A stretch of 43,225 nucleotides of DNA from Candidatus Undinarchaeales archaeon (lineage in GTDB: Archaea > SpSt-1190 > JASMDC01). The stretch lies in contig JASMDC010000030.1 in the NCBI GenBank assembly GCA_030753015.1, forward strand, positions 1 to 43,225, given 5' to 3'. The position numbers were made by a program, and so were the translations under genes. The notes under the pieces are model-generated. The model searched no databases, was not told the DNA's origin, and worked only from the letters and a program-made list of their open reading frames with translations. Below are positions 3,824-33,651 of the stretch, one piece after another (within the stretch, counting starts at the first letter, position 1; every line of letters starts with the position of its first letter).

Positions 3824-3845
3824 TGGCTGACACTCGGAATGTAGA

Positions 3846-3858: not shown

Positions 3859-3910
3859 ATGCCCTCCCCTCGGACGCCCCGTTAAAGCGGAGCAGAGCGA
3901 GGTCCGGACA

Positions 3911-7887: not shown

Positions 7888-9219
7888 CTATTTATCGAGC
7901 ACCTGCTCCGGATCGTCCATCATCTCGATGAACCAGAGCACGGCAGGAAGGTTGTTATCGACCACATCGTCGATGTCCTCCTCGTCGGGATTGAACTGCG
8001 TGAAGGTGTTGCCCCATCCGCCTCCGCCTTCCAGCTCGACGGTGTAGGCGAGCATCCCCTTGGAGTCCGCCCAGTCGGTGTACGTACCGCTGGCCAGGGC
8101 CGTCCGGCCGCCGTGCATCACGTCGTACGGGCGCTCCATGAGCTCGCGCATCCCATTGCCGATGGCGCGGTAAAGCTCCTCACGCTCGCCATCCTCGGTG
8201 GTGTAGTCGGGGGCGTACTGGTACTCGCCACCATAGGAATGAAACGCCAGCGTCCCCTTGAAATCATGCTCGGCCACGAACTCGGCCATGGCCGTGGTCT
8301 CCTGCTCGCTCATGGCCTCGGGACCACGGTAGGTCTGGTGCCAGTAATTGCCGCTGGCACCGGGCTTGCCCCAGGCCTCCGAGAAGTTACGGTTGAGGTC
8401 CACACCATGGAGCGAGGACGACCTTTCGGCCCAGTTCCCCTCCTCGACGAGCTCGCTGTTATCGCGGGCGTTCTTGCGGTGGTCCGAGTCACCGTACCGC
8501 CGCACCTGCTCGGCCACGATCATCCCGCCATCGGTATTGAAGCTCGGGATTATCCAGGTGTCCCGGCTGTCCACCAACTTTGTGATATAGGCGTCCTTGC
8601 CGTAGCCGTCGACCATCGTCTTGGCCACGTCGAGGGGCACCTCCACCGCGATGGCCTCCCGGGCATGGAACTGGCCGACAAGTAGCACCTCGGTCCGCGC
8701 CTCGCGGTCCTTCACGCGAGCGTCGCTGCCGATGCGTATGGCGTAGATCGGATTACCGAGTCCACTCTTCCCGATGACCTCGACATGAGCGAGGTCCGGT
8801 GCCTTCTTCTCGAGAGCGTACAGTTCCTCGGCGACCTCCTCGGGGACGTGGTACTTGCCCAGACCACCGTCCCTGAGAGGCGAATCGGTGGGTATACGCT
8901 GCCAGGAACGGACATACTGTCCCTGCTCGACATACTTATCAAGGGCATCGTCACGGTCATAAGCGCCCCCTTCAGCGGGGAGCACCATCTCCTTGGGAAG
9001 CCGTATCTCGTAGTCGCCGAGGTCGATCCGGTAGTCGTCTGCCAGCTCGTGCTCAAGCAGCTCTTGGTGGGCGGGAGGCGTCGTTGCCGGATGGTCCGCC
9101 GCGTACGCTATTGGTGCGATAGCGGTGATGGCCGTGGCACCGAGGAGGGCATAGGTGGTGGCACGCTTCACCACACGGGCGAGCACACCCTCACCATCGC
9201 CGTCCCCGGCTTCTTCCAC
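7888..9219 (-). CDS. Exported M14-family zinc carboxypeptidase
   Basis: This 443-residue protein is an M14 metallocarboxypeptidase. Zinc ligands are seen as His185 and Glu188 (FHARE) and His327 (HSYGG); VDLNRNF at 273-279 and Glu395 (YTVELEG) match substrate-binding and catalytic positions, so the enzyme looks intact. A hydrophobic segment at about 21-41 after basic residues is a signal or anchor sequence, placing the enzyme outside. Before the catalytic domain, IDLGDYEIRLP (about 65-75) resembles the IDMGDYQVTLP motif of the peptidases at 25634-31613. The start is GTG at 9219, after AGGGGA. It lies 44 bases downstream of the unknown membrane protein gene and is probably co-transcribed with it. 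Confidence 0.93.
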   Translation of the reverse strand: MEEAGDGDGEGVLARVVKRATTYALLGATAITAIAPIAYAADHPATTPPAHQELLEHELADDYRIDLGDYEIRLPKEMVLPAEGGAYDRDDALDKYVEQGQYVRSWQRIPTDSPLRDGGLGKYHVPEEVAEELYALEKKAPDLAHVEVIGKSGLGNPIYAIRIGSDARVKDREARTEVLLVGQFHAREAIAVEVPLDVAKTMVDGYGKDAYITKLVDSRDTWIIPSFNTDGGMIVAEQVRRYGDSDHRKNARDNSELVEEGNWAERSSSLHGVDLNRNFSEAWGKPGASGNYWHQTYRGPEAMSEQETTAMAEFVAEHDFKGTLAFHSYGGEYQYAPDYTTEDGEREELYRAIGNGMRELMERPYDVMHGGRTALASGTYTDWADSKGMLAYTVELEGGGGWGNTFTQFNPDEEDIDDVVDNNLPAVLWFIEMMDDPEQVLDK

Positions 9220-13746: not shown

Positions 13747-13769
13747 CAAGTTGGCCTCGGCCCCGTACG

Positions 13770-13783
13770 GCCTTAATAAAGGT
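13770..13783 (-). promoter_or_regulatory. TATA element of secA
   Basis: On the minus strand ACCTTTATTAAGGC lies about 30 bases before the secA ATG at 13746. It falls in the 75-base gap after the stop of the pilin-like gene, so secA has its own promoter. Confidence 0.6.
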
Positions 13784-13821
13784 TTCTCTGCGCGGGACTG
13801 GAAAACGGCATACGTAGGCCC

Positions 13822-18464: not shown

Positions 18465-18466
18465 TT

Positions 18467-21400
18467 TCATCTCCTCCGTGGTGCGCAGGTGCAGCCACAT
18501 GACCTCGTCTCGAGAGTGCAGTCGTTATTGTCTATATGGAGCTCGCAGGTGGAGAGGCAATCCTCGCACACCACTTCGAGGCGGCAACCTCCCAAGTCGA
18601 AGGTGGCGTCGATGGTCTGACGCGCGGTGTCGTCGAACTCTATCTCCTTTTCCTGGATGACCCGTGCGTTGGGGAATAGGGTGGGATCGGCGTCATCGTC
18701 GATCCATAAGGAGCCGTCCCCGTCCGTAGCGGTGACGTGCAGTCCCATGGCGGAACCACCCTCGGGATCGCCGAAAGCTCCGAACACCGACGAGCGGAGA
18801 GTGACGGTACCCCCTCGTGCCAGCTCCGATAGGTCCTGCTGCACCAGTCCACCGATAACGTCCATGCCGTCCTCCAACCGCGGTGCTACCTCGACGCTCC
18901 CTGAGAACGGGACGTGCGCGAGGTTCCTGACATCTATCTCGAACGACACGGGTTGGCGCAGCACCGCCGTGGTGATAGGCCTACCGTCGGCATCACGGAA
19001 CACGGCCTCGGCGATCCTGAGCTGGGGCCGCTTCACCTCGAGGTAGGCCCGGGGGTAGCCGAGCATGACGCGGGAGCGCTCCCCGACGCACCAAGAGGTC
19101 ATGACGCGACCGGTGCACCGCTCCGGATCGAACCCCTGCTCGTCCAGCACCGTGTCCAAGAGCACGCTCCCGTCACCGCCGGTGACGCGGACGCCAATAT
19201 GGAGCACCCAGCCGAGCAGATCGCCCGTGAGCTGGAACGGCGCCGTCTCCACCACCAACTCCTCACCGGGGGCGTCGATCGTCCTGGCAGCGCGCGTCCC
19301 CGCGAGCTCCTGGGACGCGCCGATGACCGCGTACGTCTCCACGGATACAGGGAACATCTGTGTCGTCACGACCAACCGGCCGACGACCTCCATACCGGGG
19401 TTGCCGTCGGTGACCTCCTCGTCGCTGTCCGTGGACACGAAGGCGCCGTGGGTCACACTCACCTCGCCCATCTCGACAACGTGCGTCAGCGGCCCCGCTG
19501 CCGTGGCCACGCCCTCCCCCTCGTCGTCGACGACGTCCAGCTCCAGCTGGACGGTTGCATTGGCCATCCACGGTTCCAGCTGGATGGGGTCGGAGATATA
19601 GGCCCACGAGTCGCCGGGCGCCAGCGGTCGGATGGGGACGTCCCGCAGCTCGATGACCTCTTCCTCGCATGCACACCCGCACTCATACGTGTCAGGACAT
19701 GGCGGGCAGTCGCACTCGCCGATGACCCTGAGCCGGGCGACCGCACGTCCCGTGAAGGAGTAGTCACCCGTGTTGTTCACCACGGCGCGGACCCGGACGC
19801 TCTCGTTGGCATAGAATGTACGGGTCTCCTCTGAGCCGCGGAGAAGCGCCACTTCCGATACGGTGACCTCCGGCGACACGGCTTTGCAGAGCTTGGCACA
19901 CTCCTTCTCGTTCCCGCCCGAGCTCGTGCAGTTCTCCATGCACGCGATGGTGGCATTGGCGGGATCACACCCCTTGAAACATCCATCCCGGGCGTTCCGG
20001 TCCTCCGGGAAGCGTATCCCGCAGTCGGTCACGCACGCAGGATCGCGCCCGCAATCGACGAGGCATGTGTGTTGGATGTCGACGTCGTCCTCGCCCAGGC
20101 AGCGCTCCTCGCAGGCGACCTGCACATCGTCGCACTTCCGCATGCACGTCCGGGCGTCGCCCGAACCGGCCCCGAACTTGATGACACACCCCTCCTCGCA
20201 GATGATGTCCGTCTCGCCGTCGCCAAGGCCCACGCACGCCTCCAGACATGGACGAAGGAGGACCGGGTCAGGCCGCTCGCGCGCGCATGTGTCCTCGCAC
20301 GTCGAGTTGCTCGGATCGCAGGTACGCATGCAGTCAAGGGCCCCGCGAACATCGGTCTCGTTGCCCGCAAGGCAGTCCCGCTTGCACTCGAGTGTATCGT
20401 TGAGCTCATCCTCGGGCTCAGGTGTGGGCGTCGGCATCACCGAGGGCATCGGTGTGGGGCTGACCGTTGCGTTGGGCGTGGGGCTGGGGGTGACGGTGGC
20501 GTTGGGTGTCGGTGAGGGGGTAGGCGACGGTGTCGGTGTGGGCGTCGCGGTGACGTTCCCCATATTGCACTTCTTGATGCACTTACGTGCTGCCGTGCTG
20601 TTGTCCTTGTGCTGGTCCAGGCACGCTTCATCGCACGGCACCTCGCGTGGCTCGCACTCGATCTTGCCCACCGGACGTTCGGTCAATCCCTCAAGGCAGC
20701 ACAGTCCCGTTTCGGACGTCGTCCCCACGCACACGTCGTAGGTCATGCCCGCAGCCCCGTACGGCGACTGGCACACGCTCGCCCCGCTCGTGGGCCCGGA
20801 CATGGGCTGATAGCTGGACCGGGCAGGGGGTACTGCTCCTAGCTGTCCTGCGGTCCCTTCCGTCCCCTCCGGCGCACAGCACTGCCGGGCAAGCTCCAGC
20901 GCCTCTTGGTCCCAGTTGATGGGGCAGTTCATGTCGATGAGATGGTGCCCGCTCCCAGTATGACACACGCACAGGCTGAGCTCGGGGTGACAGTGGGATC
21001 CAGTCGTTCCGAAGCAGAGCTGGCACGCCTCCTGGCACTGCCCCGGGGACAACTGCGCATCATTAGGAGCTGTCGGCGGGCGACGCGTTTTATACCTGAA
21101 GCAGTCCTGCATGTCCATGAAGAGCTTGTCCGGATCGAGGCGCGCCAGGTTCATGAGCGCGGCGACGTGGCCGGACGACCAGGCGTCCACGTTCACGTCC
21201 AGAAGCTCGACGCCTTCCTCCAGCTCGGACTCGCATCTTCCCGTCGGACGACCGCACCCGGCGACCGGTGCATCGCTGGTGATCCGCCTGACGAGTTGTC
21301 GGAGCTCCGGGACACCCTTACTCCCTCCCGAGGAGCTGGACGAACCACCGGCCGCCCGCTCCTTTGCGACGGTCGTCCGGTCCTTGACGTTGTACCGCCC

Positions 21401-24121
21401 GCAGAAGTCACCCCAGACGCCCGAACCACGGTAGCTGACATTCGCGCTGAGCAGTTCGTTGGAGACGATTATGCCGACATCATCCCTGTCACCGTTCTGG
21501 CCGGTAGAGCTGTCGTCCACATCGTATCGCCGATTGCTCGACATGGGGACGTTGAGGGATATGGGCCCGATATTGACGCCGGTGTACCCGATGGAGTCGC
21601 TGTTGCGCGCCATGCCGGGGGTCGATACATCACGGATGAGGGGATCGCCGGCGAGGGTGACGAGGGCCGTCAGCTCGTACTGGAACTCGGTAACCGAATT
21701 ACCTCCCTGCCCTCCCTTCTCCAGCATGCCCACGAGGTCGTTCACGTGCTGCTCGAGCCCGGGGGGCGGGGCGCCGGTCCGCATCGAGCTGCGCACGTCC
21801 CCGGCCAGCAGGCGGAGCTGGCGGGCCACGGCAGAGATTGCGGCTGTGCGCTGGTCGAGAGCGGCCTGGCCCCTGCCCGTGCGCTCGGCCATCGTGCATG
21901 GATCGAGAGTGATGCCGCCGAGGACGTCCGAACTGCCCACGGCGCATGCGTCCCAGAGATCGGACATCGCCCGCTGACAGGCAAGGAGCATAGAAGGCGC
22001 GGTGATGACCGAACGGGCCGATGCGGCGACGACGGTCGCGTTGGCGATCTTGCAGTCACCATTACACTTGGAGGGACAGGTCGCTTTCTCGCGTATACAG
22101 CAATCGCCCTCCTCACCGGGTTTGACGACGCATTCGTAGGTGCCCTTCTCCTCGTCCTTCTTGAACCGCAGGACCTCGCCGCACGCATCCTTCGTATCGC
22201 ACTTCTCGCCCTCGGACGGATCACCGATCTCGCATGCTGACGCGAACGCGCAGGGAACGGCCGCGCAGAGCGGGCATTCTGCGGCCTCCTCGACGGATTT
22301 GCTCTCTTTTAGCTCCGGTGCCGAGCCCGTGGAGTGCTGGAAGGCGGGACCGCCGCTGCCCGGTGTGCCCCCGATATCCCGGCAAGCCTGCTCGAACCGC
22401 TCCTGAACGAGTTCCGGGTAGTATGGCCCGTGACCCCTCTTCCGGCAGTAGTAGTTCGCGTTGTTCCACTTGGTACCGGCACCGTAGTACTTCTCACACG
22501 AGCGCATCATGGAGTCGAATGACGAGGCGCCTCCCTTGCGGTAGTTGATCGCGGTCTCCATAGCACCCATGCCGCGGTTGTAACCGAACTGGACAAAGGA
22601 GAGGGCCTCACTGCTCGACGCACCCAACGAACCGGCCTTGTTCAGGTTCGCAGCAAGTTCCTTGAGCCCCAGGTCGATGCCAAGGTCGGCGTTCCCCTTG
22701 CACGCACAGTACAGCGGGGAGCTCTTGTCCACGCGGCATGGATGGTCGACCTGCATGATACCGCCGCAATTTACGCTTGGATTGCACGAGGACTCCTGCA
22801 TCATGAGGGCCGCGATCTGGAGCGGGTCCACGCGTCCGTTCAATCCGTGCTTCGCCATATAGCGCTCGACGGTCTTCATGTAAGGAGCGCACGCGCCCAA
22901 GCTGCTCGAGCCGAGCTTGCCCATGTCGCCGCCCTGGCATCCGAAGGCGCCCTGTTCACCCTCTGAAGGGTCCTCGGTCTGGCCAGCCGTGGAACCCCCC
23001 CCGCCAGAGTAGTAGGCCTTGATGTCCAGAGGGTCCATGTATTGCCCTGGACCTTGTGGGCGTGCGATGAGGATAGCGAAGTGGAGGTGCGGCACCTTGT
23101 TCCCGAGCCCGACGGCACCCAGGTTCGTACCTGCAGTGACGTGTTTGCCACCGCTCCCGTCCGGGACGTGGAACGCAAGGCTCTTCATGTGCGTGTACCA
23201 GGCGAAATAGTACGTTTTGCCCTTGTACTTGAGCGGCTTGTCGAACTTGAGGAGTACGCTGTTGGGCGTGTCCGGTGGTGTGGTCCACTTCGTGTGACCG
23301 CGCTCGCTGTAAACGAGGGTACCGTCTGCGACGGCGTAGGTCGCGGTGCCCGCGGGGACGTGGATATCGATGCCCCGGTGTCGCCCCGCTGCGCCGTAGG
23401 TCTTCCATTGCGATTGACTCGTCCCCCGGAGCGGTTCGACGAGCTTGCCGCCCCCTGAACCGGACTGCGTGCTTTCGCCATCACCAGTGCCTGTGCCCGT
23501 ACCCTGGTCGGCCCCACTCCCGGAGCCGCTCCCGGTCGCCTCGTCCTCACCGCCACCGACCTCTCGCCCTTCGTCGGGACGACACTCATCGAGCCCCTTC
23601 ACCTCGCATCTTCGCCCCGCGGCCTGGTCGCAGAGCGCGGGTCCGAGGCCCTCGCTGGCGACCTTCATCGCCGTGAGCCCCTCCCCGCCAAGACGGGGAT
23701 CGCAACTGTCCAGTCCGAGCCCTTTTACCTGCTCGATGGCCTTGTTGCAGATCCAACACTGCTGGATGAACCCATCCTGTGCAACTACCATGTTAGTGGA
23801 GATTGTGGAGTAGTGTTGCACCATCTGCTCGTACGCGCCGGCCATGGCGTCGAGGTAGTCGGCCATGTTGTCGAACTCCTGGCCGGTGCAGGGGATAGCG
23901 AGATTGGAGATGTACGGCGCACTCGCACCCGAACTGCCGATGGCGTCGAGCGCTAGACCGCCGATCTCGGTGGTTTCCACCTCCTCCACGCCGTCCTTGG
24001 CTTTCTTGAGCTCCCCCTGCGCGTATCCGTCCTCGATATCCAGGCGCTGGTCTCCGGCGATGACCGAGGCTAGCACCAGGGCGAGCACGAGGAGGACACA
24101 TAGGGCTGATGACCGTTTCAT
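18467..24121 (-). CDS. Giant exported protein with M23 endopeptidase and lytic transglycosylase domains
   Basis: At 1,884 residues this is the largest gene here. Order: signal peptide (MKRSSALCVLLVLALVLASV); Cys-containing helical region; Gly/Ser/Thr linker (about 190-230); M23 peptidase domain (about 235-375) with zinc ligands His248, Asp252 (HRGID) and His347 (HLH, with His345), plus YTHM; SLT-type lysozyme-like domain (about 410-580) with catalytic Glu443 in MMQESSCNP followed by GGIMQVD; Cys-rich and helical regions; a Pro/Thr/Ser tract; at least a dozen Cys-x3-Cys elements (CEERCLG, CLVDC, CFKGC); CARDB-like beta domains; and a Cys-rich C-terminus. Known M23 and SLT domains cut peptide and glycan bonds of peptidoglycan. 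ATG 24121 follows AAGGTGGGGAT; GTG at 24130 is an alternative. First gene of a three-gene operon. Confidence 0.92.
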   Translation of the reverse strand: MKRSSALCVLLVLALVLASVIAGDQRLDIEDGYAQGELKKAKDGVEEVETTEIGGLALDAIGSSGASAPYISNLAIPCTGQEFDNMADYLDAMAGAYEQMVQHYSTISTNMVVAQDGFIQQCWICNKAIEQVKGLGLDSCDPRLGGEGLTAMKVASEGLGPALCDQAAGRRCEVKGLDECRPDEGREVGGGEDEATGSGSGSGADQGTGTGTGDGESTQSGSGGGKLVEPLRGTSQSQWKTYGAAGRHRGIDIHVPAGTATYAVADGTLVYSERGHTKWTTPPDTPNSVLLKFDKPLKYKGKTYYFAWYTHMKSLAFHVPDGSGGKHVTAGTNLGAVGLGNKVPHLHFAILIARPQGPGQYMDPLDIKAYYSGGGGSTAGQTEDPSEGEQGAFGCQGGDMGKLGSSSLGACAPYMKTVERYMAKHGLNGRVDPLQIAALMMQESSCNPSVNCGGIMQVDHPCRVDKSSPLYCACKGNADLGIDLGLKELAANLNKAGSLGASSSEALSFVQFGYNRGMGAMETAINYRKGGASSFDSMMRSCEKYYGAGTKWNNANYYCRKRGHGPYYPELVQERFEQACRDIGGTPGSGGPAFQHSTGSAPELKESKSVEEAAECPLCAAVPCAFASACEIGDPSEGEKCDTKDACGEVLRFKKDEEKGTYECVVKPGEEGDCCIREKATCPSKCNGDCKIANATVVAASARSVITAPSMLLACQRAMSDLWDACAVGSSDVLGGITLDPCTMAERTGRGQAALDQRTAAISAVARQLRLLAGDVRSSMRTGAPPPGLEQHVNDLVGMLEKGGQGGNSVTEFQYELTALVTLAGDPLIRDVSTPGMARNSDSIGYTGVNIGPISLNVPMSSNRRYDVDDSSTGQNGDRDDVGIIVSNELLSANVSYRGSGVWGDFCGRYNVKDRTTVAKERAAGGSSSSSGGSKGVPELRQLVRRITSDAPVAGCGRPTGRCESELEEGVELLDVNVDAWSSGHVAALMNLARLDPDKLFMDMQDCFRYKTRRPPTAPNDAQLSPGQCQEACQLCFGTTGSHCHPELSLCVCHTGSGHHLIDMNCPINWDQEALELARQCCAPEGTEGTAGQLGAVPPARSSYQPMSGPTSGASVCQSPYGAAGMTYDVCVGTTSETGLCCLEGLTERPVGKIECEPREVPCDEACLDQHKDNSTAARKCIKKCNMGNVTATPTPTPSPTPSPTPNATVTPSPTPNATVSPTPMPSVMPTPTPEPEDELNDTLECKRDCLAGNETDVRGALDCMRTCDPSNSTCEDTCARERPDPVLLRPCLEACVGLGDGETDIICEEGCVIKFGAGSGDARTCMRKCDDVQVACEERCLGEDDVDIQHTCLVDCGRDPACVTDCGIRFPEDRNARDGCFKGCDPANATIACMENCTSSGGNEKECAKLCKAVSPEVTVSEVALLRGSEETRTFYANESVRVRAVVNNTGDYSFTGRAVARLRVIGECDCPPCPDTYECGCACEEEVIELRDVPIRPLAPGDSWAYISDPIQLEPWMANATVQLELDVVDDEGEGVATAAGPLTHVVEMGEVSVTHGAFVSTDSDEEVTDGNPGMEVVGRLVVTTQMFPVSVETYAVIGASQELAGTRAARTIDAPGEELVVETAPFQLTGDLLGWVLHIGVRVTGGDGSVLLDTVLDEQGFDPERCTGRVMTSWCVGERSRVMLGYPRAYLEVKRPQLRIAEAVFRDADGRPITTAVLRQPVSFEIDVRNLAHVPFSGSVEVAPRLEDGMDVIGGLVQQDLSELARGGTVTLRSSVFGAFGDPEGGSAMGLHVTATDGDGSLWIDDDADPTLFPNARVIQEKEIEFDDTARQTIDATFDLGGCRLEVVCEDCLSTCELHIDNNDCTLETRSCGCTCAPRRR
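20415..20575 (-). repeat. Pro/Thr/Ser low-complexity coding repeat
   Basis: Within the giant exported protein this stretch codes for short repeats of TPTPSPTP and NATV units. Such tracts are usually extended extracellular spacers, often glycosylated; the NAT triplets are N-glycosylation sequons. The DNA is a degenerate six-base-period repeat and may vary in length between strains. Confidence 0.8.
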
Positions 24122-24175
24122 AATCCCCACCTTCCCATAGCTATACCTATCACTTAGGCCCCCCGAGTCGTGCTA

Positions 24176-24320: not shown

Positions 24321-25625
24321 TCACACTTCCTTGAACCTTGCTGAGAAAGAAGCGTCCTCGCCCGAGATATTGGTGACCGCCAGCCAGAGCGTCCCGTCCT
24401 CGTGTATATCGATGTCCGTTGCTCCACCGTTGAGCGTGTCCGCCACCAGAGTAGGTCCCGATGACCCCACCATAGCAGCGCGCAACCGGAGCCCGTCGGA
24501 CGAACCGCTCTCAACCCTCACTGTGCGCCCCGCGGTGACCTGGGCCTTCATGAACGACATCCCTCCGCGCCCGGACACATCGGCATAGCAGGTCAGTCCA
24601 TCGGAGAGCTCGGTCGCCTTCACCTCACCTATGTCTAGCCGCTCGAACGCGTACATCCCCCCCTCGAACGAGGTGTCGTTCACCGCGATGGCCAGGCCCA
24701 GGTCGGCGAACACGGTGTCGAGGTCGAGGGAGGGGTTCAGACCCCCGAGCCTCGCGTCCAGCGAGTCCTTCCCGTGCAGTGGATCGGCCGTGAGGTCCTT
24801 GATGAAGCTGTCACCGAACCTCTCCCAGAGGTAGTCGCCGAAGAGCATGTAGAGGCCGTAGTGCCCCCGACCGATCTTGTCCGGGATAAGAGCGTGGGAG
24901 GGGTCGCGCAACCAGGTATCGACCCAGCGTTCGTCCGCACCGTAGCCGGTGAGCACCATCGCCACCTCGCTCATGGCCTCGTTGAGCCAGTTCTCCTCAT
25001 CCCGATCGTGGCCCCAATGGATGAGGTGCTGAAGCTCGTGGGCCTGTACGGAGAGCATGTAATCGGAGTCGGGAGCGTAATGGAGCGTGTTGATGTGTAG
25101 GGTCTCATGTCGGTTGGACACAGGGACGTCGAGCTGGTCCTCGACCTTGAAGTAGCCGTCGAAGCTGTGCCCGCGGTACCCCTCCATCTCGTACAGGAAG
25201 AGGTAGACCTTCGGATCGTTGTCGAACTCGTCCGGTGGGTCGCCGAACAGGCCCGTGACCTGGTCGTAGAGACCGTGCTCGGGATCGGAAGGTGTCCCTT
25301 CGTCCCAGGCCCTGATTAGGTTGGCCACCGTCCCCTCGTCAACGGAGTGGCCCCAGGCCGCGTCCTCGACGACGACGTACACGTTCCTCCCCTCACCGCG
25401 CACACTGGCCGCGATCTGCTCGTCCCGGGGGGGCATCACCGACAGGTCCCACACCCACCACATGTCGGTTGCGGGGCCGTACGGTCCCGGGACCGTGACA
25501 TCGTGGTCCGCATAGGCCGGAGGGTACTGGCAGAGGGGTCGGTGGGCCGTTGAGTATACCGGGGCTTGGTCCTCGAGCTCAGGAATGTATTCCGCGACCT
25601 CTTCGACGGGACCTGCGTCTTCCAT
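24321..25625 (-). CDS. Putative HExxH zinc metallopeptidase
   Basis: This 434-residue protein has HELQHLIHWGHDRDEENWLNE-type sequence near residue 200: HELQH supplies two zinc ligands and the glutamate of WLNEAMSE, about 20 residues on, the likely third. The arrangement recalls M6 or M30 (hyicolysin-like) zincins. The last 100 residues look like a beta-sandwich (VTAGRTVRVESGSSDGL, DGTLWLAVTNISGE) of the pre-peptidase C-terminal kind. Unlike the other peptidases in the operon it shows no membrane helix or signal at ATG 25625. GTG at 25637, overlapping the upstream stop as GTGA, adds four residues only. It is the last gene of the seven-gene protease operon, 8 bases after the preceding stop. Confidence 0.85.
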   Translation of the reverse strand: MEDAGPVEEVAEYIPELEDQAPVYSTAHRPLCQYPPAYADHDVTVPGPYGPATDMWWVWDLSVMPPRDEQIAASVRGEGRNVYVVVEDAAWGHSVDEGTVANLIRAWDEGTPSDPEHGLYDQVTGLFGDPPDEFDNDPKVYLFLYEMEGYRGHSFDGYFKVEDQLDVPVSNRHETLHINTLHYAPDSDYMLSVQAHELQHLIHWGHDRDEENWLNEAMSEVAMVLTGYGADERWVDTWLRDPSHALIPDKIGRGHYGLYMLFGDYLWERFGDSFIKDLTADPLHGKDSLDARLGGLNPSLDLDTVFADLGLAIAVNDTSFEGGMYAFERLDIGEVKATELSDGLTCYADVSGRGGMSFMKAQVTAGRTVRVESGSSDGLRLRAAMVGSSGPTLVADTLNGGATDIDIHEDGTLWLAVTNISGEDASFSARFKEV

Positions 25626-25633
25626 CGGGCCGC

Positions 25634-27181
25634 TCACTCTTTGCCCTGCTGCGACTCCAGGTAGATCTGGAGCCACAGAGGGAGCTCGAAGGCCTCCTCG
25701 ATGGTGGGGTTCCGCTTCTGCATCAGCTCGTCCCACGACGTGTCCTCTGCGAACCCGGTGGCCTCGTACAGCTGCTTGTAATGATCGTACTCCCGCTGCA
25801 CGCTGGGGACGTAGATGTGGAGCCCCGTTGCAGTGCCATGGGACTGGGCGTTGTGCTGCTCGGCAACGACCACCTGTCCGATGGACTTTATCACCTTGTT
25901 GGCAGCATCGCGCACTGCGGGTTCGTACTTCTCGTTGGCCGCGAGCCGCTCGGCCAGGTCACCCAGGTCCACGAGGGGCTCCGGGAAACCGAGCAAAGGA
26001 TTGGTGCCGAAGTGAAGGCTTGCGTCGTTGGCCTTGTTGAACTCCTCCATGGGGACCTTCGATCCGAGCAGAGCATCGGCCAATCCATCCACGGCCTCGG
26101 CCACCTTGGGCATCTTGGCCACCTCGGTGGCAGAGAGTGTCCTGAGGTTCTGCTGGTCGTTCTCGGCCTCCTTGACGATGAGGTAGCTCATCAGCTTGGG
26201 CGAGAGCTCGGGGCGCGGGCCGTCCTTGAAGGCCTTGGAGTACTTCTCCATGACCACAAGGGCACGGTTGCCCATGATGCCCTCGTAGGGCCAGCCCTCG
26301 GCGCCCTCATTCTCCTCGCTGGCCACCAGGAAGTCGGTGACGCTCCGTACTTGGTAGGCGCCCTCGGCCGATGCCATGAGGCACGCGTCGTACCCGAGCA
26401 CGTCGATCTTGACGCCCGTCTTCTGCTGGACCTTGCCCAGAGCCTCCTGGACCTGTGCCCAAGTCATGGAATCGGTACCCGCGGAATCATCGATAATCGA
26501 GCCGGTCCAGCCCATACCGTGGTCGGAGATGACGAGCATGTAGTTCTTCGCAGGGAAGTTCTGGACGCCCCACTCCACGAAGTCCTGGAGGTTCGCAGGA
26601 TCGGCCATGTCGATCTGACCTAGCTCACCCAGAACGGGGGAGTTGAGCTCGCCCTTAGTACCATCCTTCTGGAGGTGATAGCGCCGGGCACCGGTCCACG
26701 CTCGCTTGCCCATGTCGATCTTGCCGTCTGCCTTCTCGCCGCGGTCGAGCTGGACGATCACGTCCGCGTTGTCGGTGGAGCCTATCTTCTCCATATCGTC
26801 CACATCGGCGACCTGATAGGCCTCAAGATTGTTGTCCGCGGCGGAGTAGACGAGGATGGTCCACTCCTTGCCTTCGGCCTGGTCGTCCTGGGCAGCGTAG
26901 TTGAGCGGGATGGACGACGGGAGAGTGACCTGATAGTCACCCATATCGATGACGTTGCCTTGTTTGGCCTGTTCGGTCTCGATGACGTACGCCGGCTGAG
27001 GGTCCGTTCCGGGAGGCGGGAGCGTGTTGGGGAGCATGCCGCCACCGATGCCGACAATAGCACCACCGATGGTGGCTACAAGTCCAAGCCCTGCGGCGGC
27101 GTAGGTCGCCACCTGCTTGGTAGTAAGCCCCTCTTCCTTCTCGTTCGCTTCCGGTTCAGGTTCCTGCTCGACGTACATCAT
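25634..27181 (-). CDS. Membrane-anchored clostripain-like C11 peptidase, copy 1
   Basis: C11 peptidases are caspase-like cysteine proteases that usually cut after Arg or Lys. The catalytic dyad is seen as His221 (ISDHGMGW) and Cys267 (DACLM) in a 515-residue protein. The N-terminus has an acidic cytoplasmic tail (EQEPEPEANEKEE), one helix (about 24-45, YAAAGLGLVATIGGAI), a Pro-rich linker and the motif NVIDMGDYQVTLPSS (76-90), then the catalytic domain starts at KEWTILVYSAADNN. An N-in, C-out orientation is likely. It lies 8 bases after the stop of copy 2, to which parts are almost identical at the DNA level, pointing to recent duplication or gene conversion. Confidence 0.93.
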   Translation of the reverse strand: MMYVEQEPEPEANEKEEGLTTKQVATYAAAGLGLVATIGGAIVGIGGGMLPNTLPPPGTDPQPAYVIETEQAKQGNVIDMGDYQVTLPSSIPLNYAAQDDQAEGKEWTILVYSAADNNLEAYQVADVDDMEKIGSTDNADVIVQLDRGEKADGKIDMGKRAWTGARRYHLQKDGTKGELNSPVLGELGQIDMADPANLQDFVEWGVQNFPAKNYMLVISDHGMGWTGSIIDDSAGTDSMTWAQVQEALGKVQQKTGVKIDVLGYDACLMASAEGAYQVRSVTDFLVASEENEGAEGWPYEGIMGNRALVVMEKYSKAFKDGPRPELSPKLMSYLIVKEAENDQQNLRTLSATEVAKMPKVAEAVDGLADALLGSKVPMEEFNKANDASLHFGTNPLLGFPEPLVDLGDLAERLAANEKYEPAVRDAANKVIKSIGQVVVAEQHNAQSHGTATGLHIYVPSVQREYDHYKQLYEATGFAEDTSWDELMQKRNPTIEEAFELPLWLQIYLESQQGKE

Positions 27182-27189
27182 TAACCCTC

Positions 27190-28689
27190 CTACTGGCCTC
27201 CCTTATTCTGATTCGCCCGCTCCTGGAGGAACTCGTCCCACTGGGTGTCCTCTGCGAAGTCGAGCTCACCGTACTTATCACCGTCGAAGGAGTCCTGGCC
27301 CTCTCCAGGTGGACCGTTGAAGGGCACGTATATGTGCAGCCCGTGGGCGTTGGGATGGCTGGTCTCGTTGTGCTGCTCGGCGACGACAACCTGGTCGACG
27401 GCCTCGATGACCTTTGCCGCGGCCTCGCGCACATCAGCGCCGTAGGCACCATTGGCAGAGACCTTCTCGGCCAGCTCTACTGCGTCCACGAGCGGCTCCT
27501 CAAACCACCACTGCCTCCCAAAGTGGAAGCTCTCCTCGGCGATCTTGTTGAACTCGCTGATGGGCACCTTGGACCCTCGCAGCGCCTCGGCGAATCCGTC
27601 CATGGCCTCGGCGACCTTGGGCATCTTCTCCACCTCGACGGCAGAGAGAGTAGGGAGGTTCCGCTGGTCGTTCTCGGCCTCCTTGACGATGAGGAAGCTC
27701 ATGAGCTTCGGAGTGAGCTCTGGGCGCTTACCGTCCTTGAAGGCCGTGGAGAACTTCTCCATGACCACCAGGGCCCGGTTGCCCATGATACCCTCGTAGG
27801 GCCAGCCCTCGGCACCCTCCAGCTCCTGGCTCGCCACCAGGAAGTCGGTGACGCTCCGTACCTGGTAGGCGCCCTCGGCCGACGCCATGAGGCAGGCGTC
27901 GTACCCGAGCACGTCGATCTTCACACCGGTGCGCTGCTGGACCTTGCCCAGTGCTTCCTGGACCTCGACCCAGGTCATCTCGTGGTCCCCGGAGGAGTCG
28001 TCCCCGATGGCCCCGGTCCATCCGGCGCCGTGGTCCGAGATGATGAGCATGTAGTTATCGGCGGGGTAGTTGTTCACACCCCACTCGAGGAAGTCCGCGA
28101 GCACGTCGGGATCGGCCATGTTGACCTGCCCGAGCTCGCCCATCATGGGGGAGTTGAGCTTCCCTTTCTCGGCGTCCTTCTGGAGGTGGTAGCGCCGGGC
28201 GCCGGTCCAGGCCCTCTCTCCCGAGTCGACCTGGCCCTCGGCGACCGTGCCGCGGTCGACTTGGATCACGACGTCCACGTACTTGTCAGAACCGACCGTC
28301 TCCATGTCGTCGTTGTCGGCCATGAGATACGGCTCGAGGTTGTTGTCGGCGGCCGAGTAGACGAGGACGGTCCACTCCTTGCCCTGCGTACGGGCGTCCT
28401 GGTCCGCATAGGTCAGGGGGAGGGACGAGGGGAGGGTTACCTTGTAGTCGCCCATGTCGATGACGTTACCCTGAGTGCTCTGTTCGGTCTCGGTCACATA
28501 GGCCGGACGCGGGGTCGTGTCCGGGGGCGGCTGGAACGGCGGAAGGATGTTGATCGCACCGCCGATGGCGGCTACGAGCCCAAGGCCCGCTGCGGTGTAG
28601 GCCGCGACCTGCTTGAACGTAAGCCCGTCCTCTTCTCGTTCCGGCGCTTCATCGTGCTCGTTCTCATTCTCGATATACATCATGATCAC
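27190..28689 (-). CDS. Membrane-anchored clostripain-like C11 peptidase, copy 2
   Basis: This 499-residue paralogue has the same plan: an acidic tail (ENENEHDEAPEREED), helix about 30-48, linker, NVIDMGDYKVTLPSS, and a C11 domain with His220 (ISDHGAGW) and Cys266 (DACLM). Both catalytic residues are intact. Several in-frame ATGs (28689, 28683, 28680) follow AGGTGATC; the protein may begin MMYIENEN. The match to copy 1 is strongest around the active-site Cys. The stop of copy 3 is 10 bases upstream, so the copies form one transcript. Substrate specificity may differ between copies, since the C-terminal thirds diverge more. Confidence 0.93.
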   Translation of the reverse strand: MIMMYIENENEHDEAPEREEDGLTFKQVAAYTAAGLGLVAAIGGAINILPPFQPPPDTTPRPAYVTETEQSTQGNVIDMGDYKVTLPSSLPLTYADQDARTQGKEWTVLVYSAADNNLEPYLMADNDDMETVGSDKYVDVVIQVDRGTVAEGQVDSGERAWTGARRYHLQKDAEKGKLNSPMMGELGQVNMADPDVLADFLEWGVNNYPADNYMLIISDHGAGWTGAIGDDSSGDHEMTWVEVQEALGKVQQRTGVKIDVLGYDACLMASAEGAYQVRSVTDFLVASQELEGAEGWPYEGIMGNRALVVMEKFSTAFKDGKRPELTPKLMSFLIVKEAENDQRNLPTLSAVEVEKMPKVAEAMDGFAEALRGSKVPISEFNKIAEESFHFGRQWWFEEPLVDAVELAEKVSANGAYGADVREAAAKVIEAVDQVVVAEQHNETSHPNAHGLHIYVPFNGPPGEGQDSFDGDKYGELDFAEDTQWDEFLQERANQNKGGQ

Positions 28690-28699
28690 CTGTTGAACA

Positions 28700-30175
28700 T
28701 CACGGACCCGACGGGGTCTGCTTCATCTTCTCTGCCCGATCCTTGAGCCACTCGTCCCACTGGGTGTCCTCGGTGAACTCGAGCTGCTCGTACGCCTCGC
28801 CGTCGTAGGACCCTGCCCACCAGCTCGACGGGACGTAGATGTGCAGCCCGTGGGAGCCGGGATGGGTCGAGTTGTGGTGCTCGGCCACAATCACCTGGTC
28901 CACGGCCTCGATGACCTTGTTGGCGGCGAGCTTCACGTCCTTGCCATACTGGTCGTTTGCGGCGAGGTTCGTGGCCAGGTCGACCACGTCCACCAGGGGC
29001 GAGCCCCAGCCGTAGTCCTGGCTGTTGCCCTCAATGGTATTGAACTCGGTGACAGGGACCTCGGACGCACGCAGGGCGACGGCGAGCCCGTTCACGGCTG
29101 ATGCCACCTTGGGCATCTTCTCGAGCTCTGTTGAGGAGAGCGTGTCGAAAGTGGCGGTATCATTGGCGCCTTCCTTGACGATGAGGTAGGAGTAGAGCTT
29201 GGGCGTGAGCGCGGGGCGGTCGGTGTCCTTGAAGGTGCGGTTGAACTTCTCCATGACGTCCAGTGCCCGCTGGCTGATGATACCCTCGAAGGGCCAGCCC
29301 TCGACGCCCTCCAGCTCCTCGCTGGCCACCAGGAACCCGGCCGCGTCGCGGACCTGATAGGCGACCTCGGTCGATCCCATGAGGCAGGCATCGAATCCGA
29401 GGATGTCGATCTGTGCACCAGTGCGCTCCTTGACCCGCTCGAGCGCCTGGTCGAGCTCAGGCGTGGACATCTGTCCGGCGTGGTGTGAGCTGTCGTCGAT
29501 GAAGCCCTCCCAGCCCGAGCCGTGGTCGGCGATGATGAGCATGTAGTGCTTGGCGGGGAAGTTCTTGACGGTGAACTCCACGAACTCCGCCAGTGTCTCG
29601 GGAGCGGCCATGTCCACCTGTCCGAGCTCCGCTAGCACCGGTGAGTTGTAGTTGACCGGGTCGGTATCCTTCTGGATGTGGTAGCGCCGGGCACCGGTCC
29701 AGTCGCCGCCCTGGGGCGTGTCGGCGGTGTATCCGCGGTCCACCTGGACCACGACGTCCATGTAGTCGTTGGATCCCAGCTTCTCCATGTCGTTGATGTC
29801 GGTGAGCTGGTCGTTCTCGAGGTTGTTGTCGGAGGCGGAGTAGATCATGACGGTCCATTCCTTGGCCTCAGCGGGAACCCGGGCGTCCTCGCCGTAAACG
29901 AGAGGGATGTCCTTGGGCAGAGTGACCTGGTAGTCGCCCATGTCGATGGTGCCGCCCTTGACGGCGTCCTGCACTTCCGTGACATAGGCGGGCCGGTAGG
30001 GTCCAGTCCCCGACGCGGGGGTCGCGTCCATGGGTCCCACGGCCGTGCCGATGGCGCCACCTACGGCGGCTGCGAGGCCGAGGCCCAGTGCGGCGTACAC
30101 GCCCACCTTCTTGAGCGTGAGCCCTTCCTTCTCGTTCTCTATTTCCGTTTCGTACTCCGTCTCCATTATCATCAT
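28700..30175 (-). CDS. Membrane-anchored clostripain-like C11 peptidase, copy 3
   Basis: The most divergent of the three C11 copies (491 residues). His218 (IADHGSGW) and Cys264 (DACLM) are present. Its N-terminus, ENEKEGLTLKKVGVYAALGL followed by GLAAAVGGAI, is closer to the subtilase encoded just upstream than to the other C11 peptidases, as is the motif TIDMGDYQVTLP. The body is nevertheless clearly C11 (KEWTVMIYSASDNN). Starts at 30175, 30172 and 30166 are possible after GGGAG; a gap of 28 bases separates it from the subtilase stop. The mixed similarity suggests recombination of the anchoring module between neighbouring genes. Confidence 0.92.
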   Translation of the reverse strand: MMIMETEYETEIENEKEGLTLKKVGVYAALGLGLAAAVGGAIGTAVGPMDATPASGTGPYRPAYVTEVQDAVKGGTIDMGDYQVTLPKDIPLVYGEDARVPAEAKEWTVMIYSASDNNLENDQLTDINDMEKLGSNDYMDVVVQVDRGYTADTPQGGDWTGARRYHIQKDTDPVNYNSPVLAELGQVDMAAPETLAEFVEFTVKNFPAKHYMLIIADHGSGWEGFIDDSSHHAGQMSTPELDQALERVKERTGAQIDILGFDACLMGSTEVAYQVRDAAGFLVASEELEGVEGWPFEGIISQRALDVMEKFNRTFKDTDRPALTPKLYSYLIVKEGANDTATFDTLSSTELEKMPKVASAVNGLAVALRASEVPVTEFNTIEGNSQDYGWGSPLVDVVDLATNLAANDQYGKDVKLAANKVIEAVDQVIVAEHHNSTHPGSHGLHIYVPSSWWAGSYDGEAYEQLEFTEDTQWDEWLKDRAEKMKQTPSGP

Positions 30176-30203
30176 CTCCCGTCCCTGTCATATGATCCGG
30201 TAA

Positions 30204-31613
30204 TCATTGCTCCCCTTCCACTCCGTCGGGATTATCCGTCCCTGTGGGCGGTGGAGCGGAACCGGGATCGGACTGCAGAGCGCGGTCCAACTGGATAATG
30301 CCGTGGCCGTAATACTGATCCCAGCCGCTGCTGCCGCGGTCCAGCGCGGTGGTCTCAAGCGCGGTGCGCACCCGTTCTGGCGTGTTGAAATCGCTGGAAT
30401 AGCCGATCAGCACGGCGGCCGCCCCTGCCACGTGCGGCGCCGCCTGGGAGGTGCCGCTATTGTAGATGTAGGTGTCGTCAAGGCCGGTGGAGCCGATGTC
30501 CGATCCGGGCGCGGCCAGGTCTACAAAATCGCCGTAAGTGGAGAAACGAGAGCGGTTGTCGCTGGAGTCCGTAGACGCCACTGCAATCGTGTTCTCGTAG
30601 GCAGCCGGGTAGTCGATGGTGTTGCTGCCGGAGTTGCCGGCGGCAGTCACCACCGTCACGCCGTGCTCCACCGCATAATTGACGGCGTCTTCCAACGCCC
30701 TGGAGTTAAAAGGGGCTCCCAAGCTCAGATTAATGACGTCCGCACCGTTATCCGTGGCGAAGATAATGCCGTCGACGATGGCGGAGTACCTGCCGGCGCC
30801 GTTCGAACCCAGCACCTTGACCGGCATAATGCGCGCCCCCCACGAGACGCCGGCGACGCCCTCCCCGTTGTTGCTGACCGCCGCTGCAATTCCCGCCACG
30901 TGCGTACCGTGCCCCTGATCGTCCTGCGGGTTGTCGTCCCGGTTGACAAAGTCGTATCCAGGCACGATCTTGGCTGCCAGGTCAGGGTGGTCGAGGTCAA
31001 CCCCGGTGTCCAACACGGCGATTATGACCGAGTTCGATCCGGTACTCAGGTCCCACGCCTGCGGAGCCCGGATGCGCTGCGGGCCGTACTGCAAAGACCA
31101 ATATGTATCGTTGGGCGTTATGTCGAAAGCATGGGCCACGTAGTTCAACTCGGCATATTCCACCAGCCCTGAGTTGTTCAGCGCATCCAACAGTTTCTTG
31201 GCGTCACCATCGCCGGCGCGCAGCAGCTGAACGTCGAGGGAGGAGATCTCGCCCTCGATCCGCGCATCCAGGCCATCGATGAGCGCATCCGAGTCGCTCT
31301 TGTACAAATCTCTACTGAACTTCACCAGCACTTCGTCCGGCACGTACCCCTCGCTGTACACCATGGGGGTGCCCTCGGGAAGGGTGACCTGGTAGTCGCC
31401 CATGTCGATGACGTTCCCCTGGCTGCTGTGCTCGATCTCGGTCAGATAGGCCGGCCGCGGGGTCGTGCCCGGCGGGGGCGGGATGATACTTATGGCCCCG
31501 CCAATGGCGGCCACAATGCCCAGGCCCAGGGCGGCGTACCCGCCGACCTTCTTGAGCGTGAGCCCTTCCTTCTCATTCTCCAAGTCCGTTTCGTACTCCG
31601 TCACCATGATCAT
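30204..31613 (-). CDS. Membrane-anchored subtilisin-like S8 peptidase
   Basis: The 469-residue protein has the shared module (LENEKEGLTLKKVGGYAALG, helix about 24-44, Pro linker, NVIDMGDYQVTLPEG), then an I9/fervidolysin-like prodomain (VPDEVLVKFSRDLY to YAELNYVA, 91-160) and an S8 domain with intact Asp202 (VLDTGVD), His235 (GHGTHVAG) and Ser389 (GTSQAAPH); Asn326 forms the oxyanion hole. The prodomain implies autoprocessing after export. Start 31613 overlaps the upstream stop by one base (TGATG). The catalytic part uses more ATT, AAT, AGC and TTG codons than flanking genes, suggesting it was acquired and joined to a resident anchor. A polar GSAPPPTGTDNPDG tail ends the protein. Confidence 0.95.
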   Translation of the reverse strand: MIMVTEYETDLENEKEGLTLKKVGGYAALGLGIVAAIGGAISIIPPPPGTTPRPAYLTEIEHSSQGNVIDMGDYQVTLPEGTPMVYSEGYVPDEVLVKFSRDLYKSDSDALIDGLDARIEGEISSLDVQLLRAGDGDAKKLLDALNNSGLVEYAELNYVAHAFDITPNDTYWSLQYGPQRIRAPQAWDLSTGSNSVIIAVLDTGVDLDHPDLAAKIVPGYDFVNRDDNPQDDQGHGTHVAGIAAAVSNNGEGVAGVSWGARIMPVKVLGSNGAGRYSAIVDGIIFATDNGADVINLSLGAPFNSRALEDAVNYAVEHGVTVVTAAGNSGSNTIDYPAAYENTIAVASTDSSDNRSRFSTYGDFVDLAAPGSDIGSTGLDDTYIYNSGTSQAAPHVAGAAAVLIGYSSDFNTPERVRTALETTALDRGSSGWDQYYGHGIIQLDRALQSDPGSAPPPTGTDNPDGVEGEQ

Positions 31614-32671
31614 CACTCCCACTCCACCCAGTCGGGATTGTAGGTGCCCAGGGGCAGGTCGTCCCCGAACATCGATTGTGGTGAATACCCTAGTTGCGAA
31701 TAAGCGACATCCCGGGGGATGAGCAGATCGCGAACGTTGTTATCGGTGAGATAGGCCTTACCGTCGATGATCGTCTCGGTCCAGGCGTGACCTCCGCCCT
31801 TCATCGTCCCGAGCACCACCACCGAATCGTAACCCTTGGCCTCGAGCAGCGAGTTGGAGGCGAGTGCGTAGTCCTCGCAGTCCCCCCTGCCGAGGGAAGT
31901 GAGGAAGTGCTCCGGGTTCTGCCAGTAGTCGGTGTGACCGAGATGCTCGGCGTCGAAGAAGTACTTCCCCATGAGCGGTTTGCCGTCGGCGAACCGCATG
32001 AACTTGATACCGGATATGGTGTTCTCGCCGATATTTATTGAGCTGGGAAGGTCGCGGACCTCGAGGTTGTTGGCGTAGCCCTGGACGATCTCACTGTCCG
32101 GTGTGATGTAGGACGAGGGATCGTTGGGCATGTAGAAGCCCCGCTGTTCGCCGATCTCCTGGTGCCTGAGCGAGGGGAAGCCGTCGGGGATGCCATCGCT
32201 GTTCGCGTCAGCGTTATCGGGGTGGAGGTCGTAGGCGTCAGCGAGCCCGTCACCGTCCCGGTCGGGGAGCATGAAGTCGGGGTCCTTGCCGTCGATGATA
32301 CCGTCAGCGTCCACGTCAGGATTGGACCAATCCCAGTCCCGGCCGTCGAGGATGCCGTCCCCGTCGATGTCGGGATTACCGGGGTGAGGGTCGATGGAGT
32401 CGTAGAGGTGGTCGCCGTCGGCGTCCGCCATGGCCTGTTCGGGAGAGAGCGTGGGAACGCTGTCGTCGCCCAGCACACGGGTCTTGGGGGGCCCGGGCTC
32501 GGCCTCCTTGCCGAGCAGTGCACCAAGGACGAGCCCACCGGTGATGGTGAGGCCGACCGCTATGAATCCCTTGGCCACAGATTCGGCGTTGAGGTCCTCG
32601 GTGACCGTGTAGCCGTCGGCCGCCGTGGCGGTCCCGGCCTCATCGGTCTCGAGGTCGATGTCCATCGCCAT
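31613..32671 (-). CDS. Transglutaminase-like protein with calcium-binding repeats, copy 1
   Basis: This 352-residue protein has a cytoplasmic N-terminus, one helix (about 33-55), then a run of thrombospondin type 3/EF-hand-like repeats (about 82-165; DADGDHLYDSIDPHPGNPDI, DGDGILDGRD, DRDGDGLADAYD) that should bind Ca2+ outside the cell. The C-terminal domain has the papain-like transglutaminase triad Cys265 (GRGDCEDYA), His295 (GGGHAW) and Asp310 (YLTDNN). Known members act as peptidases or cross-linking enzymes. The start ATG overlaps the SPFH gene stop by one base (TGATG); ATG 32665 is an alternative. A paralogue with longer repeats lies at 39252. Confidence 0.92.
   Translation of the reverse strand: MAMDIDLETDEAGTATAADGYTVTEDLNAESVAKGFIAVGLTITGGLVLGALLGKEAEPGPPKTRVLGDDSVPTLSPEQAMADADGDHLYDSIDPHPGNPDIDGDGILDGRDWDWSNPDVDADGIIDGKDPDFMLPDRDGDGLADAYDLHPDNADANSDGIPDGFPSLRHQEIGEQRGFYMPNDPSSYITPDSEIVQGYANNLEVRDLPSSINIGENTISGIKFMRFADGKPLMGKYFFDAEHLGHTDYWQNPEHFLTSLGRGDCEDYALASNSLLEAKGYDSVVVLGTMKGGGHAWTETIIDGKAYLTDNNVRDLLIPRDVAYSQLGYSPQSMFGDDLPLGTYNPDWVEWE
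32210..32440 (-). repeat. Calcium-binding DxDGDG repeats in transglutaminase copy 1
   Basis: The coding DNA repeats a unit of roughly 39-45 bases encoding DxDGDGxxDxxD elements. These are aspartate-rich calcium-binding loops, not a non-coding array. Confidence 0.8.
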
Positions 32672-33651
32672 CAGTTCCCCTCCCGTACTTCGAGCTCATA
32701 TCCACTCTCGTCGATCTCGTACACCTGGACGCCGTACACGTCCTCGAAGGAGGGGATGATGTGCATGTCCTTGCCCTGGCCTCGCATGTGGAGCGACGCC
32801 TCGAAGTCCTCGATGACCTTGGACGGATCGTTCTGGATATCCTGGTAGAACTGCTGGGCGGCTTTCTTGAGCTCGCCCTTGAAGTAGGGGACACGGTCGC
32901 GTTCGAATGTCTTGACCGCCTCCTCGCCCTCGAAGGCAGCGAGCGTGGCCTCGTCCTTGTACTGCTTCTGGACGGGTTCGAGGTACTCGTTCAGTGTCGC
33001 CTGGACCACCTGGGTGCCCACATATTCGAGCGTTGTCTTCAACGCGCCCTCACGCGAGGAGAACTGCATCCAAATGGCGTCCTTCTCCTGCTCGGAGAGC
33101 GGGCCGTTACCTCCGTTGATCCTGGAGGTCTCGATGGTCTCGATAAGCTTGTGGTAATCGGTCCGGGCATCGAACTGCGCCAGGTTCTCGACGCTGTAGG
33201 ACACCTGGCCGTGGATGTACGCTTCCTTGGCGGCGTCGGCCTTCTGACCGGTGTAGGTTGCGAGCTGCCCGACGGGGATGTCGATGTCGACCGTCTGACG
33301 TTCAAGGGACACCTCCTCGTAGCTGGAGAATGGGACTGGGAGACGAAGGACGAACTTGCTTCCATCGGTCTCGTTCTCGATGTAGCGGGTGCCACCTTCG
33401 AAGTCGAGGATGCCCCGTTCATCGAGCTGGACGGACTCGTGGATGATGGCGCCGGTGTTGGGAGGGACGATACCGACCGTGGACACCATACCGAAACCGA
33501 CCCCGAGGGAGGCGAGACCGAGGCCGATGTACTTGCCGACGGTCATGGCCTGCGCGCCCAGCGGCAGGTCCGAGAACTTAGTTACTTCCTCCTCACGGTT
33601 GTCCGGTTGTAGGTCTTCCTCTTTGAGCTTCTCGTCCTCAAGGTTCCTCAT
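32671..33651 (-). CDS. SPFH/band-7-like membrane protein
   Basis: The 326-residue protein has an acidic N-terminal tail (NLEDEKLKEEDLQPDNREEE), one helix at about 36-62 ending in STVGIVPPNTGAIIHE, and a domain with the beta-rich start and long C-terminal helices of SPFH (stomatin/prohibitin/flotillin/HflK) proteins. Such proteins form membrane rings that organise or restrain proteases; HflK/C and FtsH are the best-known case. Here it is the first gene of an operon that encodes six enzymes with peptidase-type active sites, which fits a scaffolding role, though this is inference. ATG 33651 follows AGGGGGTAA. Similarity to SPFH was judged by pattern only, so the family call is moderately sure. 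Confidence 0.75.
   Translation of the reverse strand: MRNLEDEKLKEEDLQPDNREEEVTKFSDLPLGAQAMTVGKYIGLGLASLGVGFGMVSTVGIVPPNTGAIIHESVQLDERGILDFEGGTRYIENETDGSKFVLRLPVPFSSYEEVSLERQTVDIDIPVGQLATYTGQKADAAKEAYIHGQVSYSVENLAQFDARTDYHKLIETIETSRINGGNGPLSEQEKDAIWMQFSSREGALKTTLEYVGTQVVQATLNEYLEPVQKQYKDEATLAAFEGEEAVKTFERDRVPYFKGELKKAAQQFYQDIQNDPSKVIEDFEASLHMRGQGKDMHIIPSFEDVYGVQVYEIDESGYELEVREGN

What the first reader, a model, noticed from the sequence alone, without database searches (positions are those of the whole stretch)
24321..31613. One membrane-anchor module joined to unrelated protease domains
Four adjacent genes (a subtilase and three C11 peptidases) begin with a nearly identical unit: an acidic tail, GLTLKKVGxYAALGLG-type helix, Pro-rich linker with RPAYVTE, and IDMGDYQVTLP. 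Serine and cysteine peptidase folds are unrelated, so the module has been shuffled. The M14 carboxypeptidase 15 kb away has IDLGDYEIRLP in the same place after its own hydrophobic segment. The conserved motif outside the helix may be a docking or processing tag of an undescribed surface system.
Basis: partly seen in the sequence, partly recalled or inferred. Interest (0 to 1): 0.88.

Follow-up and report, generated by a model that had tools for sequence, protein, structure and literature searches.

The report
Shared N-terminal leader on unrelated proteases
In one archaeal genome, proteases from two (probably three) unrelated families carry the same N-terminal membrane leader ending in a small conserved hairpin, where their relatives have an ordinary signal peptide or nothing, so a targeting or tethering piece has been swapped between enzymes; what the hairpin binds is not known.

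Summary
A subtilase (S8) and three tandem clostripains (C11) share an 82-88 residue N-terminus: acidic tail, one hydrophobic helix, Pro-rich spacer, IDMGDYQVTLP (61-69% identical to the S8 copy). A profile built without the M14 carboxypeptidase still ranks M14 first among non-members (E 3e-4 in 348 proteins, 0.06 genome-wide): probable, but weak and mainly from linker plus motif.

New evidence is replacement. The nearest S8 relatives (47% identical) carry ordinary signal peptides ending where the S8 propeptide begins. None of 78 C11 relatives has the motif; many start with a signal peptide. M14 has 45%-identical paralogues in the same genome lacking residues 1-114. So the leader was grafted. 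It was found in no other genome searched.

Reinterpretation: the module lies N-terminal to the S8 propeptide (mature domain from about residue 168), so subtilase self-processing would release the enzyme. I read it as a zymogen targeting/tethering leader rather than a permanent anchor. AlphaFold puts the same two-strand hairpin at the motif in S8 and C11, at low to moderate confidence. Pairing with the 'SPFH' protein could not be tested, and that label has no database support. New variant of a known kind.

The parts
30204..31622 (-). S8 subtilase: module (aa 1-82), Fervidolysin_NPro-like propeptide (aa 91-160), thermitase-like catalytic domain (about aa 168-451)
   Evidence: Pfam PF00082 E 4.8e-61 and PF22148 E 1.4e-12; model aligned to thermitase 1thm from residue 168, Z 50.6, rmsd 0.9 over 278
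31377..31622 (-). module on S8 (aa 1-82); motif IDMGDYQVTLP at 31377-31409
28700..30175 (-). C11 peptidase c, catalytic domain from about aa 102
   Evidence: PF03415 E 3.6e-42; clostripain 9cip Z 41.3, rmsd 2.8 over 362
29915..30175 (-). module on C11c (aa 1-87); motif at 29915-29947
27190..28689 (-). C11 peptidase b
   Evidence: PF03415 E 8e-40
28429..28689 (-). module on C11b (aa 1-87); motif IDMGDYKVTLP at 28429-28461
25634..27181 (-). C11 peptidase a
   Evidence: PF03415 E 2.7e-43
26918..27181 (-). module on C11a (aa 1-88); motif at 26918-26950
7888..9219 (-). M14 zinc carboxypeptidase with a diverged version of the module
   Evidence: PF00246 E 7.5e-51; own-genome paralogues 45% identical from residue 115 on lack the N-terminus
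8995..9219 (-). diverged module on M14 (aa 1-75); motif IDLGDYEIRLP at 8995-9027
   Evidence: left-out profile test E 0.06 / 0.011 genome-wide, E 3e-4 among 348 proteins
31613..32671 (-). transglutaminase-like/C93-like protein with acidic tail and single N-terminal hydrophobic helix but no module motif; same gene run
   Evidence: PF01841 E 1.1e-5
24321..25736 (-). HExxH metalloprotease-like ORF downstream, no module
   Evidence: NCBIfam NF045524 E 2.2e-5, far under cut-off

Best explanation
It is a lineage-specific N-terminal leader, exchanged between unrelated secreted proteases by recombination, that stands in the place of their signal peptides. Shown: its sequence, its position, the replacement in S8 and (less sharply) C11, and purifying selection on it. 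Inferred: the acidic tail stays in the cytoplasm; the hydrophobic helix inserts as a signal-anchor or a slowly cleaved signal peptide; the Pro-rich spacer holds the pro-enzyme off the outer face of the membrane; the ID-GDY-QVT hairpin is a recognition or packing element of the zymogen. Enzymes carrying the leader, encoded side by side, would be delivered to the same membrane site as pro-enzymes. S8 then self-cleaves after its own propeptide and is released; the C11 enzymes, whose self-processing is expected inside the catalytic domain, may stay tethered. The likely purpose is breakdown of outside protein by a coordinated set of endopeptidases plus a carboxypeptidase.
For: Homology of the module across S8 and C11: E 1e-30 to 5e-25. 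Nearest S8 relatives (47% identical over residues 93-465) start with ordinary signal peptides ending at the propeptide. None of 78 C11 relatives has the motif; many start with a signal peptide. The 4 other S8 and 10 other M14 of the genome lack it, and M14 paralogues begin at its residue 115. Module dN/dS 0.18-0.39, catalytic domains 0.32-0.50. Four-point distances group S8 with its neighbour C11c and C11a with C11b (my arithmetic), the latter agreeing with the catalytic domains. Acidic tail plus single N-terminal helix is concentrated here: the six contiguous genes 25634-33651 are six of the eight proteins with tail charge -3 or lower among 35 single-helix proteins in 443 kb. S8 mature domain aligns from residue 168 and confidence dips to 68 at residues 161-170. 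Same hairpin in both models: S8 strands 71-73/78-80 (block pLDDT about 54), C11c 76-78/83-85 (62-76, against about 30 for the rest of the module).
Against: No experiment and no dedicated topology or cleavage predictor was available; anchor versus cleavable signal peptide is undecided (IGGA-I in S8/C11 and AYA-AD in M14 satisfy the small-residue -3,-1 rule). Nothing shows that the hairpin binds anything; its confidence is low in S8 and moderate in C11, and the module rows of both alignments are the same five sequences. Some C11 relatives (Eremiobacterota) lack a signal peptide too, so the C11 replacement is less sharp than in S8. The M14 copy is weak.
Confidence: 0.55

Rival explanations
1. Permanent type II membrane anchor and stalk: the proteases remain tied to the cell surface for life, and the motif is merely a short structured foot of the catalytic domain.
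For: Hydrophobic run of about 22 residues after KK, no lipobox, Pro-rich stalk; other genes of the run share the acidic tail plus helix layout.
Against: In S8 the module lies before a cleavable propeptide, with the mature domain starting near residue 168, so ordinary processing would free the enzyme.
Confidence: 0.18
2. Long signal peptide plus pro-region: the helix is a cleaved signal peptide and the spacer plus hairpin is a removable pro-segment or intramolecular chaperone, with no addressing or tethering role.
For: M14 has a textbook AYA-AD site after its hydrophobic segment; GGAI is invariant in the S8 and C11 copies and similarity drops right after it.
Against: S8 already has its own propeptide; one chaperone segment serving two or three unrelated folds is unlikely; the acidic tails are atypical next to the short basic signal peptides of this genome.
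Confidence: 0.2
3. Spread by adjacency only: tandem duplication and gene conversion carried the module between neighbouring genes, and its likeness reflects common origin rather than function.
For: Found only in this genome and mostly in four adjacent genes; S8 is closest to neighbouring C11c.
Against: Synonymous divergence is about as high as between the catalytic domains (pS 0.40-0.67 against 0.46-0.48) while the protein is kept; a diverged copy sits on M14 more than 16 kb away.
Confidence: 0.07

Closest known systems
YSIRK/GXXS signal peptides of staphylococcal and streptococcal surface proteins (PMC5962339)
   Same: One conserved N-terminal targeting sequence shared by otherwise unrelated exported proteins; basic residues before a Gly/Ala-rich helix.
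   Different: No Pfam match for the modules; the module adds a long acidic tail, a Pro-rich spacer and a hairpin outside the helix; archaeal host; no effect on location has been shown.
Clostripain family C11 (9cip) and thermitase-like S8 subtilases (1thm)
   Same: Catalytic domains and, for S8, the propeptide are ordinary members.
   Different: Their N-termini are replaced by the module.
Secreted C11, C25 and M14 peptidases of sediment archaea such as Thermoprofundales/MBG-D (PMC6461988)
   Same: Archaea with sets of secreted peptidases for external protein breakdown, including C11 and M14.
   Different: Those were recognised by ordinary predicted signal peptides; no leader shared across families is mentioned in the passages I read.

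Membership tests
Peptidase S8 (subtilase) | catalytic domain with Asp, His, Ser motifs and subtilase fold | tested here: met
   PF00082 E 4.8e-61; thermitase Z 50.6, rmsd 0.9, 278 aligned
Peptidase C11 (clostripain) | C11 domain with conserved His (HG.GW) and Cys (DACLM) | tested here: met
   PF03415 E 3e-43 to 8e-40; H218 invariant and C264 nearly invariant in the 54-row alignment; clostripain Z 41.3
Peptidase M14 | zinc carboxypeptidase domain | tested here: met
   PF00246 E 7.5e-51
YSIRK signal peptide | match to a Pfam signal-peptide profile | tested here: not met
   no Pfam family at E 10 or below for the four S8/C11 modules; for M14 only two unrelated families under cut-off
YSIRK signal peptide | directs secretion to a particular membrane site | not testable with these tools
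   needs microscopy of tagged proteins
archaeal class III (archaellin/pilin) signal peptide | K/R-G or K/R-A immediately before the hydrophobic stretch | tested here: not met
   by inspection the helix is preceded by KKVG or KQVA, without K/R directly before G/A
known general propeptide | profile match of residues 1-95 to a described propeptide family | tested here: not met
   no meaningful PDB sequence match
SPFH/Band_7 (32671-33651) | match to PF01145 or to a true Band_7 protein | tested here: inconclusive
   no Pfam, NCBIfam, PDB or BLAST support; fold not predicted

The most novel reading that the evidence does not exclude
The leader is a dedicated address of an undescribed surface-protease system: a partner, possibly the SecA encoded on the same contig or one of the other acidic-tailed membrane proteins of the gene run, recognises the tail or the ID-GDY-QVT hairpin and gathers zymogens of unrelated folds at one membrane site for joint activation.
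Probability: 0.2. Interest if true: 0.78.

Novelty: new variant of a known kind. Interest (0 to 1): 0.5.

Why it matters
If true, it shows that an archaeon can retarget unrelated secreted enzymes by swapping one N-terminal cassette, and it gives a short, testable motif for how a surface protease set is gathered and activated. The same contig carries a full-length SecA in an archaeal genome, which would make the export route itself worth testing.

Tried and rejected
Searched for the module elsewhere: own genome, 60 and then 393 other archaeal genomes, all 10 held genomes of the phylum, GTDB r220 contigs, IMG/VR: only the five known copies. The one weak outside hit (L120, E 0.008) is an S8 with an ordinary signal peptide and no motif; L014/L015 are unrelated metabolic enzymes by eye. 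A PDB profile hit (21nr, E 4.5e-8) is a repeated low-complexity match to the acidic tail and Gly/Ala helix (each repeat E about 7) and was rejected. Helix similarity between the module and the 'SPFH' protein (VGxYxxLGL) looked suggestive but is not significant (E 3 in 348 proteins). Homologues of the 'SPFH' protein were not found in IMG/VR or 296 other archaea; three weak hits were, by eye, a sugar-kinase-like protein, a DnaK and a short ORF. No SSU rRNA was found with the archaeal model. Identity values for C11a rest on a truncated segment and are not used.

Full report
Observation. On the minus strand of the window a run of genes encodes a subtilase (S8, 30204-31622) and three clostripain-family peptidases (C11c 28700-30175, C11b 27190-28689, C11a 25634-27181). 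Their first 82-88 residues are one module: an acidic tail, a hydrophobic segment introduced by KK or KQ, a Pro-rich spacer with RPAYVTE-like letters, and IDMGDYQVTLP. Identity of the C11 copies to the S8 copy is 61-69%. An S8-only profile finds the C11 copies at E 1e-30 to 5e-25 on a genome-sized search, so S8 and C11 modules are homologous beyond doubt.

M14. The carboxypeptidase at 7888-9219 carries IDLGDYEIRLP in the same position. Left out of the profile, it is still the best non-member: E 0.06 (four modules) or 0.011 (S8 alone) genome-wide, and E 3e-4 against 348 proteins sampled from this genome, next best 0.34. The match comes from linker plus motif; the tail-plus-helix profile does not find it. 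I accept it as a probable, diverged member.

Replacement. The closest S8 relatives found (47% identity over residues 93-465) begin with ordinary signal peptides (for example KKLIIVLFILIAISFIGFPAQADQPVPE) that end where the S8 propeptide begins. Of 78 C11 relatives from GTDB genomes none has the motif; many start with a signal peptide, some (Eremiobacterota) with a Pro-rich N-terminus lacking one. Within the genome the other four S8 and ten M14 proteins lack the module, and two M14 paralogues about 45% identical to the window M14 start at its residue 115. The module therefore stands where other members keep a signal peptide or nothing. This is the strongest evidence that it was grafted.

Age and constraint. 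Synonymous divergence of the module between genes (pS 0.40-0.67) is like that of the C11 catalytic domains (0.46-0.48), and dN/dS is 0.18-0.39 for the module against 0.32-0.50 for the catalytic domains. The four-point condition on the module dN values pairs S8 with neighbouring C11c, and C11a with C11b (my arithmetic); the latter pairing agrees with the catalytic domains. So the module was copied about when the C11 genes duplicated, and has been kept by selection since. It is not a single recent duplication, but it is confined to one genome as far as searched: no copy in 393 other archaeal genomes, in the held phylum (10 genomes), in GTDB r220 contigs or IMG/VR. The phylum is thinly sampled, so absence is weak evidence.

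Structure. AlphaFold models of S8 (mean pLDDT 82) and C11c (82.5) leave tail, helix and spacer without confidence, yet both place two short strands at the same motif letters: (V/T)ID and QVT, around the turn MGDY. Block confidence at the motif is about 54 in S8 and 62-76 in C11c, compared with about 30 upstream. S8 aligns with mature thermitase from residue 168 (Z 50.6, rmsd 0.9, 278 aligned); its propeptide is at 91-160. C11c aligns with clostripain from residue 94 (Z 41.3, rmsd 2.8, 362 aligned).

Interpretation. Because the module precedes the S8 propeptide, normal subtilase self-processing (general knowledge of the family) would detach the mature enzyme from it. A permanent anchor is thus unlikely for S8, although C11 enzymes could remain attached. 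I favour a leader that exports and tethers zymogens at one place, with the hairpin as a recognition or packing element. That shared layout without shared sequence hints at a common membrane site, but the helices of these two do not match the module significantly. The SPFH label itself has no support from Pfam, NCBIfam, PDB sequences or comparison with a true Band_7 protein of the same genome; it remains possible at the fold level.

Comparison with known systems. The nearest functional analogue I know is the YSIRK/GXXS signal peptide, one N-terminal sequence shared by otherwise unrelated staphylococcal surface proteins that steers them, through SecA, to the septum (PMC5962339). The module is not a member: no Pfam match, a different host, and extra parts beyond the helix. 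Archaea with sets of secreted C11 and M14 peptidases are known (PMC6461988), recognised there by ordinary signal peptides.

Genome context. Genomes classed in the same domain look archaeal, and the genome has an archaeal RNase P RNA, yet this contig carries a complete SecA. In 393 other archaeal genomes only weak, helicase-like matches to the SecA profile were found, the best E 8e-7 against 3e-122 here. The contig fits the genome by composition and by a paralogous three-gene cassette on another contig, but chimeric binning cannot be excluded (contamination estimate 5.01%).

Noticed in passing
window 11278-13749 (-): Complete SecA (DEAD, cross-linking, wing/scaffold domains) in a genome that is archaeal by RNase P and kinship; the only strong SecA match among 394 archaeal genomes. 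Either a striking acquisition or a binning artefact.
   Followed up: partly
window 13822-24130 (-): Three large genes (609, 951, 1887 aa) form a cassette with a diverged paralogous copy on another contig (L139, about 11946-20000); the 609-aa protein has a pilin-like start (RGQVSLFGLIAIALVV), the 1887-aa protein is Cys-rich.
   Followed up: partly
window 39252-40514 and 31613-32671 (-): Two transglutaminase-like proteins with DxDGDG (TSP3-like) repeats, 40% identical to each other, both with a charged tail and hydrophobic N-terminal segment.
   Followed up: no
window 263-4897: Rnf-type electron transport genes (RnfC, RnfD, FMN-binding RnfG-like, RnfE-like) with a divergently placed ApbE that has a lipobox-like start.
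   Followed up: no
genome G000: 3.85 Mb at 98.9% completeness while the nine other held members of its class are 0.6-1.1 Mb; no SSU rRNA found with the archaeal model.
   Followed up: no
L125 and L127 (contig C95): Tandem S8 pair without signal peptides and a cluster of three M14-like genes on one contig.
   Followed up: no
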